Positions 12,530 through 63,509 of a DNA stretch of 64,000 nt are shown piece after piece. Position numbers and translations under genes: made by a program. Under the pieces are notes generated by a model. The model saw nothing but the letters and a program-made list of their open reading frames with translations, had not been told where the DNA came from and did no database searches. Source of the stretch: Clostridium sp. (GTDB lineage Bacteria; Bacillota; Clostridia; Clostridiales; Clostridiaceae); assembly GCA_029851835.1 (NCBI GenBank), contig JARKVD010000031.1, positions 85,268 through 149,267 on the forward strand, read 5' to 3'. Numbering within the stretch: the first letter of the stretch is position 1; each line of letters starts with the position of its first letter.

Positions 12530-12813
12530 ATAGTGTTATCCCTATGATGAGGACAGTACTTATGAACCTTATTTTCAGAGAGAAGGCATAGCAGCTGGAA
12601 TTGCCTTTAAATAAATCATAACGAAAACCACCTCTGAGCGACTCTAATAAAGTCCGTTAACTACGTTATAGTTTTTAAAGTGGTCCTTTCACTTTTATTT
12701 TGATTTACTTTGAAATTTCTTCAAGAAAGTTAATTTAATAGAAGGGACAATTTGGGTGGAACCACGGGTTATATCTCGTCCCTTTTCAATTGTGAAAAGT
12801 GACGGGTTTTTTT
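12530..12813 (+). promoter_or_regulatory. Threonine T-box riboswitch of thrS
   Basis: The RNA senses uncharged tRNA-Thr and then prevents termination. Stem I carries the AGTA loop-E motif near 12554 and an AGAGAG element with a distal hairpin (AAGGC / GCCTT). The 3' side of the specifier loop reads GAA-A-ACC-A, so the specifier is ACC (Thr). The T-box GGGTGGAACCACGGG is at 12754-12768, and the terminator (CGTCCCTTTTC / GAAAAGTGACG plus T7) is at 12773-12813. Specifier and downstream gene agree. Confidence 0.92.
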
Positions 12814-42959: not shown

Positions 42960-43036
42960 ATTAAGGAAACTCCACCTCTCTTTGCTTGGTGGAGTAAGTT
43001 CGTGTTAGCCAAATCATAGATTTGGACACTCACTTA
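42960..43036 (-). repeat. IRF-1 repeat, copy 8 (reverse)
   Basis: In reverse orientation: GGAAACTCCACC, GGTGGAGTAAGTTC, CCAAATCATAGATTTGG, CACTCACTTAAGG. Its end coincides with the aspS stop codon, so the TAA is part of the repeat edge. Confidence 0.8.
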
Positions 43037-44323
43037 AGGTACCAATCTTGTTCTGTCTCTTGGAATTAAAGTTGCTTCTCGAACATTTTCTAACCCTAAT
43101 AGCTGTGCTATAATTCTCTCCAGTCCTATAGCTAACCCTCCATGCTTAGGCATTCCATACTTAAATACGGATGTGTAGCTACTATAATTTTCTGGTTCTA
43201 ATCCTTTATACCTCATGTTCTCAACTAACTGTTCATAGTCGTGAATTCTCTGTCCACCTGTAGTTATTTCCAAACCTCTAAATAAAAGGTCAAAGCTATG
43301 AGTTTCATTTGCACCACAAGGCATAGTATACATTGGTCTTTTTCTTCTTGGGTAATGAGTTAAAAATACAAAGTCGCATCCATAAGTCTCTTTAACGTAG
43401 TGTGAAATTAACTTTTCGCCCTCAGGATCAAGATCACCTTCAAGCTCTGTTTTTCCATACTGTATTTTTAAAATTTCTATTGCCTCATTAAGCTTCATTC
43501 TTGGAATAGAACCATTTATCTCTGGAATCTCCACTCTCAAAATTTCCAAAGGCTTTTTGCCTTCTTCTGCAACTTTTCTAAGAATAAACTTCAATAACTC
43601 TTCCTCTAAATTCATAACATCATTTTCATCTTCAATAAATCCCATTTCTAGGTCCATACTTACATACTCATTTAAATGCCTATTAGTATTATGCTGCTCA
43701 GCCCTATATACATGAGCAATCTCAAATACTCTTTCAAATCCAGCCCCCACCATCATCTGTTTATAAAACTGTGGGCTTTGAGCTAGATATGCCTTGTTTT
43801 CAAAATATTTAACTTCAAAAATTTCTGTTCCACCTTCTGCTCCTTCTGAAACTATTTTAGGTGTGAAAATTTCTGTAAAACCCTCTGAAGTTAAATATTC
43901 TCTAAAGCCTTGAACAATTAAATTTTGAACTTTAAATATAGAATTTATTTTTTCATGTCTTAAGCTAAGAACTCTATTATTAAGCATAGTATCAAGATTA
44001 ACATTAAGCTGTTCCGTATTAACCTCTATTGGCAGTTCTTCATTTGTTTCATTTATAATTTTAAGCTTATCAACATGAATCTCAAAAGTATTTAAAGAAT
44101 TTTTCCCTTCTTTCACAACACCTTCAAAGGATACCACTGCCTCTAACCTAAGATTCCTTTCTTCTAGAATTGAATTCTCAACCACACATTGAACAAGACC
44201 TGTTCTATCTCTTAAAATAACAAAGGAAATAGCTTTTAATCTTCTTATCCTATGAACCCATCCTTGTATTATCACTCTTTCATTTATCCTATTATTTAAT
44301 TCATTAACTAATATTCTCTTCAT
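43034..44323 (-). CDS. aspS: Aspartyl-tRNA synthetase, archaeal-type
   Basis: 429-residue class II synthetase. An N-terminal OB-fold (about 1-110, IQGWVHRIRRLKAISFVILRDRTG) binds the anticodon; motif 2 follows in FERVFEIAHVYRAEQHNTNRHLNEY, and motif 3 in GGLAIGLERIIAQLLG. The lack of the bacterial GAD insertion makes it archaeal-type, often non-discriminating (also charging tRNA-Asn), but the sequence alone does not decide. The ATG at 44323 has AGGAGTG before it; an upstream GTG at 44332 overlaps that site. The T-box leader reads GAC (Asp). Confidence 0.93.
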   Translation of the reverse strand: MKRILVNELNNRINERVIIQGWVHRIRRLKAISFVILRDRTGLVQCVVENSILEERNLRLEAVVSFEGVVKEGKNSLNTFEIHVDKLKIINETNEELPIEVNTEQLNVNLDTMLNNRVLSLRHEKINSIFKVQNLIVQGFREYLTSEGFTEIFTPKIVSEGAEGGTEIFEVKYFENKAYLAQSPQFYKQMMVGAGFERVFEIAHVYRAEQHNTNRHLNEYVSMDLEMGFIEDENDVMNLEEELLKFILRKVAEEGKKPLEILRVEIPEINGSIPRMKLNEAIEILKIQYGKTELEGDLDPEGEKLISHYVKETYGCDFVFLTHYPRRKRPMYTMPCGANETHSFDLLFRGLEITTGGQRIHDYEQLVENMRYKGLEPENYSSYTSVFKYGMPKHGGLAIGLERIIAQLLGLENVREATLIPRDRTRLVP

Positions 44324-44422
44324 TAAAATCACTCCTTTTAAATAATGTTTTTAATCTAGATAATCCATTAAGAACTCCATATGAATCCTTTCTCTAATTT
44401 TTCATTTTTTATCTAAAAAAAT

Positions 44423-44573: not shown

Positions 44574-44806
44574 AAGCCTCCACTCCTGCTAGGAGTGAAG
44601 GCTATGTTCACGGTACCATCCTAATTTGATTAATTATAATTAATTAAATCATCTCTAATCCTTTTAACGGAGGAATCCGATTTATCCTACTCTTATTTCA
44701 GATAAACATCTCCAGGATGTCCTTCAATGCTATTGTTCTCATAGAGCTTCCACCATCCTCTACTCGCTTTAGATACTATATAACATCTACTTTTCCCTTC
44801 AAAGAT
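44574..44806 (-). promoter_or_regulatory. Aspartate T-box riboswitch of aspS (complete first module)
   Basis: Minus strand. Stem I has the AGTAG loop-E motif, the ATGTTAT / ATAGCAT helix, a GCGAG-type bulge and a distal hairpin (TAGAG / CTCTA). The 3' specifier loop reads GAA-G-GAC-A, so the codon is GAC (Asp). CGGATTCCTCCG-like Stem III and the T-box AGGATGGTACCGTG follow. The terminator GCCTTCACTCCT / AGGAGTGGAGGC with a T-rich tail is at 44574-44603. The same GAA-N-codon-A layout is seen in the thrS leader. Confidence 0.9.
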
Positions 44807-44827
44807 TTTTACATTTTCTATAAGCAA

Positions 44828-45494: not shown

Positions 45495-46844
45495 TTAACC
45501 AATACCACCATAAATAGTTCCCAAAATAATAACTACAACTGTAACTGGAACGAAAATAAATTTTCCAAAATTAATAAACCACATTCCAAGTTTTCTCTTA
45601 CACCCCTTATTAATTTCACTTAAAGTCTCATTTTTATTTAGTATATAGAAGAATATAATAGCTACTATCAATGCCGCTGCAGGCGAAATGATTATAGTCA
45701 CTAGGTTTGTAAAATTATCAAACCTTCCCATATTAACAGTCAATGGTAATGCTAATACAAAACATCCTAGTCCAATAAATGTGGACGCTTTCACCCTATT
45801 TATTTTTCTTGATGACATAAGTGCCTCTACAATTCCTTCCAGCATATTAACTGAAGAAGAAATAGCTGCAAAAATAATACTTAAGAAAAATAATATACTT
45901 AACCCTCTTCCAAAAGCCATGGATTGAAATATTGTTGGAACTGTAATAAACAATAAAGATGGACCTGCTGTAATATCAAGATTTAATGCAAATACTGCAG
46001 GAATAATCATGAATGACGCAACTAATGCTGCAATAGTATCTAATAAAGCAGTACTTAATGCCGATGATGGAATATCAAATTTTTCATTAATGTAACTGCC
46101 ATAAACCACCATACCACAACCATTTAATGACACTGTAAAAAATGCTTGTCCTAAAGCCATAACCCAGGTTTCACCATTAAGTAAATGCTCCCATCTAGGT
46201 TTCAAAAGATATTCAACTCCAGCCATTGCTCCATCTAAGCTTAAACTTTTAATAGCTAAAATAATAAATAATCCCAAAAGTAAAGGCATTATAATCTTAT
46301 TTAATCTCTCGATTCCCTTGTTAATCCCTAATGCTACAACAACTAAGGTTAAAACAACAGCTATTAAAAACCATGGAATTGTGGATGCTGATCCAGCAAA
46401 GCTATCAAAGTATGTAGCAGCATTGATATTCATAACTTGCCCAGTTATGCCCATAAAGAAATACTTTAAAATCCACCCTATAACAATAGAGTAAAACATA
46501 AATACTCCAGCGAGTCCGATTGAAGGAATAGCCCCTATTATAGAGCCACCACTTATATTTTTTCTTTTAAAGACAGCTTTTATTCCTCCTAAAGAACCTG
46601 ACTTAAACATCCTTCCAAAGGCAAATTCCATTATAAGCCCAGTGCTTCCCAATAAAAATACAAATAAGAAGTATGGTATTAAGAATGCTGCACCACCGTA
46701 TTTTCCTAGCTTGTAAGAAAACATCCATATGTTTCCTAACCCCAAAGCTGCTCCTACACAAGATATAATAAAACCAAATTTATTAGAAAATAAATCTCTT
46801 TTATTTAAAGTATTAGTTTTTGATAAATTCTTTTCTATTTTCAT
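45495..46844 (-). CDS. NSS-family sodium-dependent transporter, probably tyrosine
   Basis: 449 residues, about 11-12 TM helices. The sodium-site segment GAALGLGNIWMFSYKLGKYGG in TM1 and the ALGQAFFTVSLN helix in TM6 mark the neurotransmitter:sodium symporter family, here the bacterial MhsT/LeuT/Tyt1 branch. In Fusobacterium nucleatum, Tyt1 of this family imports tyrosine. The 425-base leader encodes a Tyr-rich peptide and attenuator (see 46985-47270), which argues strongly for tyrosine or aromatic uptake. GGAGG precedes the ATG. A second NSS gene at 62127 lacks such a leader. Confidence 0.88.
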   Translation of the reverse strand: MKIEKNLSKTNTLNKRDLFSNKFGFIISCVGAALGLGNIWMFSYKLGKYGGAAFLIPYFLFVFLLGSTGLIMEFAFGRMFKSGSLGGIKAVFKRKNISGGSIIGAIPSIGLAGVFMFYSIVIGWILKYFFMGITGQVMNINAATYFDSFAGSASTIPWFLIAVVLTLVVVALGINKGIERLNKIIMPLLLGLFIILAIKSLSLDGAMAGVEYLLKPRWEHLLNGETWVMALGQAFFTVSLNGCGMVVYGSYINEKFDIPSSALSTALLDTIAALVASFMIIPAVFALNLDITAGPSLLFITVPTIFQSMAFGRGLSILFFLSIIFAAISSSVNMLEGIVEALMSSRKINRVKASTFIGLGCFVLALPLTVNMGRFDNFTNLVTIIISPAAALIVAIIFFYILNKNETLSEINKGCKRKLGMWFINFGKFIFVPVTVVVIILGTIYGGIG

Positions 46845-46861
46845 TTTTACTCCTCCTAAAT

Positions 46862-46976
46862 AAGCCTCTAGAAGTGCTTTTCCAAACCTTTGATTTGGCC
46901 AGTGGAACTTTCACAGAATGCATATTTGATTTTACTAAGACTAATTTACTCCTTGAAATTCATATGACAAGGAGTT
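46862..46976 (+). repeat. IRF-1 repeat, copy 10
   Basis: CCAAACCTTTGATTTGG, CCAGTGGAACTTTCAC, CATATTTGATTTT, TTTACTCCTTG, CAAGGAGTTC. It lies between the second attenuator terminator and the NSS start codon and so is in the transporter mRNA. Confidence 0.78.
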
Positions 46977-46985
46977 CATAAATAT

Positions 46986-47017
46986 AAAAAAGCCACATAG
47001 CTTTTTACTATGTGGCT
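46986..47017 (-). terminator. Attenuator terminator 2
   Basis: AGCCACATAG / CTATGTGGCT, a perfect 10-bp stem with a 7-nt loop, then T6 on the minus strand. Strong intrinsic terminator. Confidence 0.88.
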
Positions 47018-47038
47018 AAATAGTCTGCCTAGGATCAA

Positions 47039-47068
47039 CAAAAGCCACATAGTATAATCTACGTGGCT
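47039..47068 (-). terminator. Attenuator terminator 1
   Basis: AGCCACGTAG / CTATGTGGCT stem with one G-U and an ATTATA loop, then TTTTG. The T-run is short, which may explain why a second terminator follows. Confidence 0.78.
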
Positions 47069-47159
47069 AAATTAAAACAACTTAAATATAACCACCATAG
47101 ATACATTTCTCTCAAGATTTGTATCTATGGTCTTATTTTTATCTCATAAATACAAACCT

Positions 47160-47225
47160 TTATCTATAATAGTTATAATAATAGCTATTTAATTTTATAA
47201 AATTAAAGGTTGTGCAATTATTCAT
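47160..47225 (-). CDS. Tyrosine-rich leader peptide (21 aa)
   Basis: ATG at 47225, TAA at 47160-47162, with AGGAG 9 bases upstream. The peptide is MNNCTTFNFIKLNSYYYNYYR, one residue over the length I may quote in full if extended, so key features: two Phe early, then Tyr at positions 15, 16, 17, 19 and 20. All five Tyr codons are TAT. It has no other plausible function, is too short for a protein domain, and its stop codon abuts RNA segment 1 of the attenuator. Translation speed over the Tyr codons would set which RNA fold forms. Confidence 0.85.
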   Translation of the reverse strand: MNNCTTFNFIKLNSYYYNYYR

Positions 47226-47276
47226 TATTATTTCTCCTATATTGAAAATATTTTTATTTTTCTTAATATAGGTATT

Positions 47277-47305
47277 ATTATATAATTATAATTTTTAAAA
47301 TACAA
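47277..47305 (-). promoter_or_regulatory. Promoter of the tyrosine attenuator
   Basis: Minus strand: -35 TTGTAT (47300-47305), 17-base spacer, -10 TATAAT (47277-47282). Transcription would begin near 47270, about 45 bases before the leader ATG. An 8-bp hairpin (CCTATATT / AATATAGG, 47236-47272) overlaps the start of the leader ribosome site. Confidence 0.75.
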
Positions 47306-47330
47306 CCCCCATTTTTATAAATTATAAAAA

Positions 47331-47479
47331 ACTACGATAAGTTTACATTAATCAAACCCTTGATTTGGTTAATGTAAACTTAAGCCACATGGAAAATCTT
47401 TGATTTTGTAAGTGGAACTTACTCAGTAGGGTACTCATGTCACTGAATATCATAAGGAGTTTCTCAAAAGTATCGTAGC
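47331..47479 (-). terminator. Terminator-like stem around an IRF-1 repeat, after the solute-binding protein gene
   Basis: Arms CTACGATA (47331-47338) and TATCGTAG (47472-47479) enclose an IRF-1 copy. On the minus strand the stem is followed by TTTTTT. It is the second case of a repeat sitting in the loop of a terminator. Confidence 0.6.
47340..47465 (+). repeat. IRF-1 repeat, copy 11 (long form)
   Basis: AAGTTTACATTAA / TTAATGTAAACTT outer palindrome around CCCTTGATTTGG, then AAAATCTTTGATTTTG, GTGGAACTTACTCAGTAGGGTACTC and AAGGAGTTTC. Confidence 0.8.
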
Positions 47480-47483
47480 TTAT

Positions 47484-62126: not shown

Positions 62127-63509
62127 TTATAATTGAATCCCAAAAACTTTAGCTATAACTGGTAGTACTCCAATTGCATTTAGCCAAATAAAGAATATTA
62201 ACACTGGTGCAACATATCTTATCATTAATATAAAAAACTTCTTAGATACAAATTTATATCTGCCACCACTTGTTATTTCTTCAATTGCATTGTCTACACC
62301 CCACACATAACCAATGAATATACACATTGATAATGCAGCTAAAGGCATCAATACATTTTCAGCTAAAAAGCTCATAAAGTCAAAGAAGTTATATCCCATT
62401 ATTAAAAAGTCACTCATTGGTCCATTTGCTAGTGAGCAAGGAATTCCAACTAAAAATATAATTGCTGCAAGTCCTATTGTAGCTTTTTTTCTTCCAATCT
62501 TAAAATTATCAATAACAAATGAAACAACTACCTCTAATAAAGATATTGCAGAGGTTAATGCTGCAAATAAAATTAACACGAAGAATAATATTCCAAAGAA
62601 TTGCCCAAAAGGCATTGCATCAAATACTGATGGTAAAGTAATGAACATTAAACTTGGTCCTGCTGTTGACTCAAAACCAAAAGCAAATACCGCTGGTAAA
62701 ACTGCTAAACCTGCAAGCATAGCAACCCCAGTATCTATAGCTGGTATAATCAATGCATTCTTTTCAAGATTTTCTTCTTTTCCAAGATAGCTTCCATATG
62801 TTATTATTGCTCCCATACCTAAGCTTAAAGAGAAGAATGCTTGTCCCATTGCAGCCATGACTGTACTAATTGTAACCTTTGAAAAATCAGGTTTTAAGAA
62901 AAATCTAATTCCTTCTATAGCTCCATCTAATGTTACTGATCGAATAACCACACCAATTAATAAAACAAATAGTGCAGGCATCATAACCTTACTTGCCTTT
63001 TCTATTCCACCTGAAATACCTTTTAAAACTATTATGCAGCACATAGCCATAAAAATAAAGTGCCATACTATTGGAGCTGTTGTAGATGAAATAAAACTTT
63101 CAAAATATGCTCCAGCCTCTGAACCTACAACTCCACCTGTAACATACTCACCAATATAATTTAGAACCCATCCACCAATTACACTATAAAAAGATAAAAT
63201 ACAAAAACCTACTATTACTCCTATGATTCCTGCAAAAGCCCATTTTTTATCAAGCTTCTTATATGCTCCAACTGCACTTAACTGTGTTTTTCTCCCTATT
63301 GCCATTTCTCCAAGCATTATTACAAAACCAAGCACCACAACCATTAATAAATATAAAACTACAAAGGCTCCTCCGCCATTAGCTCCAGCTAAATAAGGAA
63401 ATTTCCATATATTGCCCAATCCAACTGCCGATCCTGCAGCTGCTAATATAAATCCAATATTAGATGCCCATTGTCCTCTTTGATTGTCATTACTTCCATG
63501 ATTATGCAT
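62127..63509 (-). CDS. NSS-family sodium-dependent amino acid transporter
   Basis: 460 residues with about 12 TM helices. AAAGSAVGLGNIWKFPYLAGANGGGAF in TM1 is the classic sodium- and substrate-binding segment, with the TM6 segment AMGQAFFSLSLGMGA. It is closer to the broad-specificity bacterial NSS proteins (MhsT-like, Trp/hydrophobic) than is the 45495 protein. Its upstream DNA has no leader ORF or stacked terminators, so control differs from that of the other NSS gene. GAGGAATG precedes the ATG. Confidence 0.9.
   Translation of the reverse strand: MHNHGSNDNQRGQWASNIGFILAAAGSAVGLGNIWKFPYLAGANGGGAFVVLYLLMVVVLGFVIMLGEMAIGRKTQLSAVGAYKKLDKKWAFAGIIGVIVGFCILSFYSVIGGWVLNYIGEYVTGGVVGSEAGAYFESFISSTTAPIVWHFIFMAMCCIIVLKGISGGIEKASKVMMPALFVLLIGVVIRSVTLDGAIEGIRFFLKPDFSKVTISTVMAAMGQAFFSLSLGMGAIITYGSYLGKEENLEKNALIIPAIDTGVAMLAGLAVLPAVFAFGFESTAGPSLMFITLPSVFDAMPFGQFFGILFFVLILFAALTSAISLLEVVVSFVIDNFKIGRKKATIGLAAIIFLVGIPCSLANGPMSDFLIMGYNFFDFMSFLAENVLMPLAALSMCIFIGYVWGVDNAIEEITSGGRYKFVSKKFFILMIRYVAPVLIFFIWLNAIGVLPVIAKVFGIQL

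What the first reader, a model, noticed from the sequence alone, without database searches (positions are those of the whole stretch)
46985..47165. Seven-segment RNA switch with two terminators in series
Downstream of the leader stop, segments 1-7 can pair as 1:2 (16 bp), 3:4 (13 bp, one bulge), 5:6 (12 bp), or alternatively as 2:3 (12 bp), 4:5 (10 bp, terminator), 6:7 (10 bp, terminator). I verified each pairing by position. Segment 1 starts at the last base of the leader stop codon, so a terminating ribosome must cover it. The antitermination fold breaks both terminators at once because segment 5 pairs with 6. Classic attenuators have four segments and one terminator. A cascade of this kind would tighten the off state. 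With no translation at all, 1:2 also forms, so it lacks the superattenuation of trp.
Basis: partly seen in the sequence, partly recalled or inferred. Interest (0 to 1): 0.93.

Follow-up and report, generated by a model that had tools for sequence, protein, structure and literature searches.

The report
Domino attenuator with serial terminators
Upstream of a probable tyrosine transporter gene, the RNA carries a tyrosine-rich mini-gene followed by seven segments whose alternating pairings covary across relatives, so a ribosome that stalls for lack of tyrosine is predicted to topple the pairs like dominoes and switch off two stop signals at once; relatives with tryptophan, phenylalanine, histidine or leucine codons suggest that an RNA family now listed as an unexplained riboswitch candidate likely works this way.

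Summary
On the minus strand, leader ORF MNNCTTFNFIKLNSYYYNYYR* (47225-47160) is followed by seven segments that pair 1:2, 3:4, 5:6 or 2:3, 4:5, 6:7, with the stated lengths. 4:5 and 6:7 are the only terminator-like sites the scan finds nearby; an NSS symporter gene follows. All six helices carry both-side changes in 23 related leaders. In 58-62 dereplicated Lactobacillales leaders (order inferred) 1:2, 3:4 and 5:6 fit their own partner better than any of 1000 permutations; five of six non-neighbour controls do not stand out, 4:7 does weakly (12/1000). The element is a sub-threshold relative of Rfam RF04312 (trpB motif), published as a strong riboswitch candidate with unknown ligand. Of 90 such Lactobacillales loci, 84 meet a simple Trp-leader rule; genes checked are mostly trpX or trpB. 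Clostridial relatives have His leaders (hisZ, hisS), Leu leaders (other NSS genes) and Tyr/Phe leaders. A second terminator follows the first in 74 of 89; three loci that I examined have three. In 5 of 23 leaders terminator 1 has lost its U-run but keeps its hairpin, as if only a relay. Best reading: a ribosome-mediated domino attenuator. Nothing was tested at the bench.

The parts
47234..47238 (-). Shine-Dalgarno AGGAG of the leader ORF, 8 nt before its ATG
   Evidence: read
47160..47225 (-). leader ORF MNNCTTFNFIKLNSYYYNYYR* (five Tyr codons in the last seven)
47145..47160 (-). segment 1 (pairs with 2); starts at last base of the stop codon
   Evidence: covariation
47114..47131 (-). segment 2 (47129-47114 pairs with 1; 47131-47120 pairs with 3)
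47089..47105 (-). segment 3 (47105-47094 pairs with 2; 47102-47089 pairs with 4, G47095 bulged)
47057..47069 (-). segment 4 (pairs with 3, or 47068-47059 with 5)
47043..47054 (-). segment 5 (47052-47043 pairs with 4; 47054-47043 with 6)
47036..47068 (-). terminator 1 (4:5 hairpin plus U-rich tail)
47006..47017 (-). segment 6 (pairs with 5, or 47017-47008 with 7)
46991..47000 (-). segment 7
46986..47017 (-). terminator 2 (6:7 hairpin plus U tail)
45495..46844 (-). NSS sodium symporter gene (PF00209, NF037979; best match among solved structures by sequence 4us3)

Best explanation
This is a predicted ribosome-mediated transcription attenuator for tyrosine in which six alternating helices form a domino chain, so that one ribosome position would set two terminators in series. 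With enough Tyr-tRNA the ribosome would reach the stop codon and cover segment 1; 2:3 then forms, 4 pairs with 5 (terminator 1), and any polymerase that passes meets 6:7 (terminator 2). When Tyr-tRNA is short the ribosome would stall in YYYNYY before segment 1; 1:2 forms, frees 3 to take 4, and the freed 5 takes 6, so neither terminator forms and the transporter is transcribed. The middle hairpin 4:5 is therefore both terminator and relay. Shown here: the ORF, the six pairings, two terminator-like sites, covariation of all six helices, matching leader codons and genes in relatives. Inferred: the sensing of charged tRNA, the timing, the direction of the response and the transporter's substrate. 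The same plan, with other codons and one to three terminators, appears to underlie the trpB motif family.
For: (1) Pairings exact; two terminator-like sites found against 0.1 in shuffles. (2) 23 Tyr/Phe leaders that have both hairpins: ON fold 91.2% of cells paired, 43 both-side-changed cells against 16.5 shuffled, 0/500, slid controls at most 46.9% paired; OFF fold 96.7%, 34 against 8.6, 0/500, slid at most 54.6%. (3) 38 hand-picked diverse leaders (Tyr, Phe, His, Leu, Trp): 1:2 + 3:4, 62 against 25.2 cells; 2:3 + 4:5, 60 against 15.4; 0/500 each. (4) 5:6 in 58 dereplicated Lactobacillales leaders (of 74 with terminator 2): own partner -12.04, permuted -8.21 (sd 0.32) kcal/mol, 0/1000; non-neighbours 5:7 743/1000, 4:6 178/1000. 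1:2 and 3:4 in 62 leaders also 0/1000; 1:3, 2:4, 1:4 641, 87, 986/1000. (2:3, 4:5 and 6:7 were 0/1000 too, but their arms were chosen by folding, so that is no independent test.) (5) Leader codons match genes: Trp with TrpX or trpB, His with hisZ or hisS, Tyr/Phe with NSS or aroE; Trp rule 30 of 30 best and 54 of 60 sampled loci against 58 of 3000 shuffled upstreams. (6) Terminator 1 has only 2-3 U in 8 in 5 of 23 rows, about three lineages, but keeps 8-10 of 10 stem pairs, while terminator 2 has 4 or more in all 23. (7) Three-terminator loci L046, L060, L198: each segment 7 fits its own segment 8 best.
Against: No transcript data. At equilibrium the ON fold is not preferred once terminator 1 is out (P(1:2) = 0.01), and with segment 1 masked the finished RNA prefers 5:6 (0.75-0.85) to 6:7 (0.15-0.25), so the model needs cotranscriptional folding. 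Permutation and shuffle controls do not correct for relatedness; the pairs counted in A1 and A2 were taken from the window's own sequence; one measure (further pair types) was not above shuffles (237/500); one non-neighbour control, 4:7, was somewhat better than chance (12/1000). In the triple loci segment 5 sometimes fits another locus's segment 6 as well or better. 29 of 56 NSS upstream regions (about 500-640 nt each) showed no such leader by my pattern (one, L014, has it by eye). 6 of the 27 found have one terminator only (L017, L021, L024, L025, L026, L037) and were left out of A1. The match to RF04312 is below Rfam's cut-off. No convincing promoter was found.
Confidence: 0.8

Rival explanations
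1. It is a metabolite-binding riboswitch, as proposed for the trpB motif: the first hairpin region binds an amino-acid-related ligand and steers the terminator.
For: Narunsky et al. 2024 (PMC11109978, passages seen) list the trpB motif as a strong riboswitch candidate with more than 900 representatives; the same passage says a protein factor or a classic attenuator cannot be ruled out.
Against: A Shine-Dalgarno-led ORF with Trp codons ends shortly before the motif in 84 of 90 Lactobacillales loci, and in other loci the codon run differs and fits the downstream gene; the conserved sequence is explained by the alternative helices.
Confidence: 0.07
2. The attenuator is real, but the second terminator is only a redundant duplicate, and 5:6 is a by-product of two similar stems.
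For: In the window and in other NSS leaders the two stems are nearly the same, which makes 5:6 complementary automatically; a 4:7 over 5:6 fold is part of the calculated minimum, and 4:7 was weakly better than permuted in Lactobacillales (12/1000).
Against: In Lactobacillales terminator 2 is mostly a different hairpin, yet its 5' arm fits the 3' arm of its own terminator 1 (0/1000 permutations) while 5:7 and 4:6 do not. Terminator 1 hairpins without U-run are kept.
Confidence: 0.13
3. The leader acts mainly as a trans-acting small RNA, as the Rfam entry Enterococcus sRNA 2410 implies.
For: Match of 47176-46967 to RF02863, 43 bits, E 4.8e-6, below its cut-off of 61; terminated leaders would be short RNAs.
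Against: Of 29 downstream genes checked, 25 match an NCBIfam family of amino-acid enzymes, tRNA ligases or transporters on the same strand; the first bases of the RF02863 consensus can be read as the end of a leader ORF, SYFR* (read by eye).
Confidence: 0.04
4. Translation of the leader matters only through an antibiotic- or peptide-dependent stall (as in ermK, msrD), not through Tyr-tRNA.
For: Several Firmicute precedents are antibiotic leaders (passages).
Against: The residue run changes with gene function across Trp, His, Tyr/Phe and Leu members.
Confidence: 0.04

Closest known systems
trpB motif (Rfam RF04312, SRC-39-1; Narunsky et al. 2024, passages seen)
   Same: Same two core hairpins (2:3 and terminator 4:5), same conserved strings, 5' UTRs of amino-acid genes; window scores 52.2 bits.
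   Different: Below the gathering score of 59. The passages that I saw name one terminator, no leader ORF and no segments 1, 6 and 7, and speculate on a riboswitch.
Enterococcus sRNA 2410 (RF02863)
   Same: The match spans all seven segments of the window (43 bits); its consensus begins with what can be read as a leader end SYFR*.
   Different: Below cut-off 61; filed as a small RNA gene, not as an attenuator.
trp, his and phe leader attenuators of enterobacteria (recalled)
   Same: Leader peptide with cognate codons, pause-type 1:2, antiterminator, terminator.
   Different: Four segments and one terminator (recalled); no Rfam leader family of that kind matches here at E <= 1.
Predicted His leader attenuators of Firmicutes (Ashniev et al. 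2022, PMC9413887, passages seen)
   Same: His-run leaders before his operons in Peptostreptococcaceae and others.
   Different: Not linked to the trpB motif in the passages seen; His only; no serial terminators described there.
ermK and bmrCD drug-induced attenuators (passages seen)
   Same: Firmicute ribosome-mediated transcription attenuation; from memory ermK has more than one terminator.
   Different: Sense antibiotics; the passages seen describe one terminator.

Membership tests
Ribosome-mediated amino-acid attenuator | short ORF with ribosome binding site and a run of cognate codons | tested here: met
   AGGAG 8 nt before ATG, YYYNYYR*; relatives
Ribosome-mediated amino-acid attenuator | mutually exclusive antiterminator and intrinsic terminator, conserved as structure | tested here: met
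Ribosome-mediated amino-acid attenuator | downstream gene of cognate amino-acid metabolism | tested here: inconclusive
   the window gene is an NSS symporter whose substrate is unproven; the match is clear for TrpX, trpB, hisZ, hisS and aroE relatives
Ribosome-mediated amino-acid attenuator | read-through rises when the amino acid is limiting and depends on leader translation | not testable with these tools
   needs reporter or transcription assay
trpB motif RF04312 | score at or above Rfam gathering cut-off 59 | tested here: not met
   52.2 bits, E 8.4e-7; so called a relative, not a member
trpB motif RF04312 | two hairpins, the second an intrinsic terminator, in a 5' UTR | tested here: met
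Enterococcus sRNA 2410 RF02863 | score at or above cut-off 61 | tested here: not met
   43.0 bits
T-box leader RF00230 | Rfam match at the element | tested here: not met
   the two T-boxes of the window lie elsewhere, 44588-44811 and 12535-12786
Metabolite riboswitch | ligand binding | not testable with these tools
   no ligand known; rival

The most novel reading that the evidence does not exclude
The orphan riboswitch candidate 'trpB motif' (over 900 RNAs) is not a riboswitch but one ancient, modular class of leader-peptide attenuators whose codons can be exchanged (Trp, Tyr, Phe, His, Leu). Its defining invention is a domino chain: each terminator's 3' arm is also the antiterminator of the next terminator, so one ribosome decision is passed down one, two or three serial terminators, and an upstream terminator can decay into a pure relay.
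Probability: 0.7. Interest if true: 0.88.

Novelty: new variant of a known kind. Interest (0 to 1): 0.8.

Why it matters
It offers a direct, testable answer to an open question (what the trpB motif senses) without any ligand: charged tRNA read by a leader ribosome. It shows how an RNA switch could be lengthened by adding links, which would tighten the off state by multiplying terminators while keeping one sensor. The leader codons also predict substrates for poorly known transporters (NSS, BrnQ-like, TrpX-like, BPD_transp_2 permeases). It extends leader-peptide attenuation in Firmicutes, where T-boxes are a common amino-acid sensor (recalled), and the same window carries two T-boxes.

Tried and rejected
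Known Rfam leaders and T-box at this site: no match. Riboswitch reading: see rivals. Duplicate-terminator reading: tested with a permutation in a clade where terminator 2 is mostly not a copy. A promoter for the leader: the consensus scan found 3 sites against 4.5 in shuffles; my own -35/-10 guess by eye was dropped. Model R1 in the class gave 20 of 391 genomes, the same number as RF04312, so it widened the leader types seen but not the count; many of its 29 matches are its own training sequences, and L191 and L192 look like chance, as do L047, L050, L056 and L057 of the RF04312 search and L063. RF04312 over the phylum gave 5 of 398 genomes, over the order of G755 136 of 246. Rows left out before counts: A1 took only leaders with segments 1-7 (23; the six single-terminator NSS leaders dropped); A2 took 19 of the 23 A1 rows and 19 others picked by hand; of the matches I read the 30 given as loci and 60 more that I chose down the ranking, not all. 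Literature: the phrase 'trpB motif' occurs in one held paper; searches for Trp, Tyr or Phe leader attenuators in Firmicutes (listings) and for tandem terminators with leader peptides (none) showed no description of this design in the listed papers of the held open-access library; subscription papers were not seen. In the main text of two Enterococcus RNA papers (PMC3166299, PMC7724050; passages only) the string 2410 does not occur. My script rules missed cases that are visible by eye (L014, L107, L152); they are counted as misses.

Full report
CHECK OF THE OBSERVATION. The element lies on the minus strand. ATG 47225 opens MNNCTTFNFIKLNSYYYNYYR*, stop UAA 47162-47160, with AGGAG eight bases before the start. 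All six helices exist with the stated lengths. The two terminator-like sites are the only ones the scan finds in 46850-47480, against a shuffle mean of 0.1. The gene that follows (46844-45495) is an NSS symporter: PF00209, NF037979, best solved-structure match by sequence 4us3. Its substrate is not proven; the leader predicts tyrosine.

RELATIVES OF THE WINDOW. NSS homologues were collected. Of 56 upstream regions examined by script, 27 show the segment-3 pattern, and all 27 of these have an ORF that meets my leader rule; L014 is a 28th by eye. Leaders end for instance in YYYSYYR, YYYGYYR, FFFSFFR, FFSFSFFR, FFNNHFR, YYWSYYS. The script finds two terminator hairpins in 14 of the 27; in 7 more the alignment shows two hairpins, one with a poor U-run or just under the rule; 6 have one. 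Alignment A1 holds 23 leaders with segments 1-7, including L014 and the BrnQ-linked L044. The ON fold (1:2, 3:4, 5:6) pairs 91.2% of cells with 12 pairs and 43 cells changed on both sides (shuffles 8.3 and 16.5; 6/500 and 0/500); the number of further pair types was not above shuffles (237/500). Slid controls reach at most 46.9%. The OFF fold (2:3, 4:5, 6:7) pairs 96.7%, with 10 pairs and 34 cells (5.8 and 8.6; 0/500), slid at most 54.6%. Per helix, pairs with both-side changes: 1:2 5 of 16, 2:3 2 of 12, 3:4 3 of 13, 4:5 3 of 10, 5:6 4 of 12, 6:7 5 of 10. The pairs were taken from the window's own sequence, which favours them against the slid versions. Both folds are conserved, as a switch demands.

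LINK TO A KNOWN ORPHAN. A permissive Rfam scan matched 47131-47033 to RF04312 (trpB motif; 52.2 bits, cut-off 59) and 47176-46967 to RF02863 (Enterococcus sRNA 2410; 43 bits, cut-off 61). Narunsky et al. 2024 (PMC11109978; passages read) describe the trpB motif as a strong riboswitch candidate with more than 900 representatives, ligand unknown, and do not exclude a classic attenuator. I searched RF04312 in 391 genomes of the class (20 with a match, none over the cut-off), 398 of the phylum (5, one over) and 246 of the order of G755 (136; 47 over the cut-off).

LEADER PEPTIDES. In the order of G755 all 30 best loci have a Shine-Dalgarno-led ORF with Trp in its last nine residues, often ending WQSWRR or WQNWRR, whose stop lies 9-27 nt before the motif. 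Of 60 further loci that I took down the ranking, 54 meet the same rule, 26 have two nearby Trp; in dinucleotide-shuffled upstreams these rules hit 58 and 3 of 3000. Of the other six, L107 and L152 have Trp just outside the rule, L137 and L148 have Tyr/Phe leaders (HFYFSYFR, NNYYFSYFR), and L133 and L136 have none by rule. Downstream genes checked with NCBIfam: TrpX (5 of 10 proteins over the cut-off, one more, L137, below it) and trpB (4 of 10); the L148 gene is aroE. In Clostridia: His runs before hisZ-like genes (9 proteins, 3 of them over the TIGR00443 cut-off; the L190 leader was read by eye) and before hisS (L201, and L202 of the window's own genome); Leu runs before NSS genes (L046, L058; L198 by eye); Tyr/Phe runs before a BrnQ-like carrier (L044) and before permeases that are BPD_transp_2 in the two tested, L059 and L179 (L060 and L200 look alike but had no NCBIfam match).

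THE DOMINO CHAIN. Terminator search by folding found a second terminator within 75 nt of the first in 74 of 89 Lactobacillales loci where the first was found (90 examined) and in 6 of 12 clostridial loci (14 examined). In Lactobacillales the second hairpin is mostly not a copy of the first, which allows a cleaner test; terminator 2 was chosen by its own fold, not by its fit to terminator 1. For 58 dereplicated loci the 3' arm of terminator 1 pairs with the 5' arm of its own terminator 2 at -12.04 kcal/mol, with permuted partners at -8.21 (sd 0.32), 0 of 1000 permutations as low. Non-neighbours: 5:7 743, 4:6 178, 4:7 12 of 1000. For 62 loci 1:2 and 3:4 are each 0 of 1000, and 1:3, 2:4, 1:4 are 641, 87 and 986 of 1000. 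The hairpins 2:3, 4:5 and 6:7 are also 0 of 1000, but their arms were picked by folding, so this is no independent test for them; their support comes from the alignments. So each segment is fitted to its neighbours and, the weak 4:7 aside, not detectably to others. On 38 leaders of all codon types (A2) both halves covary. In L046, L060 and L198 a third terminator extends the chain (L144 also shows three hairpins by script, not examined); each segment 7 fits its own segment 8 best (-14.9, -14.1, -15.4), while segment 5 fits foreign segments 6 about as well in two of the three, and the second hairpin of L198 is weak (6:7 -5.5). In five A1 rows (L003, L006, L007, L010, L164, about three lineages by genus label) terminator 1 has 2-3 U in the eight bases after the stem but keeps 8-10 of 10 stem pairs, while terminator 2 has at least 4 in all 23. 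The simplest reading is that hairpin 4:5 is needed as a relay even where it no longer terminates well.

MECHANISM AND LIMITS. See Best explanation. Equilibrium folding shows what it cannot explain: without a ribosome 1:2 has probability 0.34 when segment 3 is out and 0.01 once terminator 1 is out, and after masking segment 1 the complete RNA prefers 5:6 to 6:7. The switch must therefore be set during transcription, as in classic attenuators. The geometry is suited to Tyr stalling: a ribosome with the stop codon in its A site would cover about two thirds of segment 1, one on the first Tyr codons none (my estimate from a footprint of about 12 nt beyond the A site).

NOVELTY. Ribosome-mediated attenuation is classic, and His leaders in Firmicutes were predicted by Ashniev et al. 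2022 (PMC9413887, passages). New, as far as searches of the held library show, are: the identification of the trpB motif as a leader-peptide attenuator, the exchange of sensing codons within one RNA family, and serial terminators coupled by a chain of alternative pairs.

Noticed in passing
window 46882-46898 and whole genome G000: The near-palindrome CCAAATCAAAGRTTTGG has 57 exact copies in the listed answer and 128 forward plus 128 reverse matches at up to 2 mismatches in the 2.19 Mb assembly (some sites may count on both strands) against 0 and 1 for the pattern read backwards. One copy sits between terminator 2 and the NSS start codon, so a dispersed repeat seems to lie inside this leader mRNA.
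   Followed up: partly
L202 (G000 contig C21, 51451-51583): The window's own genome has a second, His-type relative (MRNTLNELHIHHHRLTAL; R1 43.4 bits) before hisS, with a repeat copy nearby.
   Followed up: partly
window 44588-44811 (-) and 12535-12786 (+): Two T-box leaders; the first lies before the aspartate--tRNA(Asn) ligase gene 43034-44332.
   Followed up: no
window 47028-47033 and L032, L033, L004, L008, L010, L015, L016, L044: The hexamer CCTAGG stands between terminator 1 and terminator 2 in 9 of 23 rows of A1; no role assigned.
   Followed up: no
window 62187-63488 (-): A second NSS gene, 37% identical; the R1 model lists no match before it in the own genome.
   Followed up: no
L044, L137, L059, L060, L179, L200: Tyr/Phe leaders before carriers that match branched-chain or Trp-type families suggest aromatic substrates.
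   Followed up: partly
L189: A short tandem repeat (ATTACTCAAAATTATT-like) lies between terminator and hisZ-like start (by eye).
   Followed up: no
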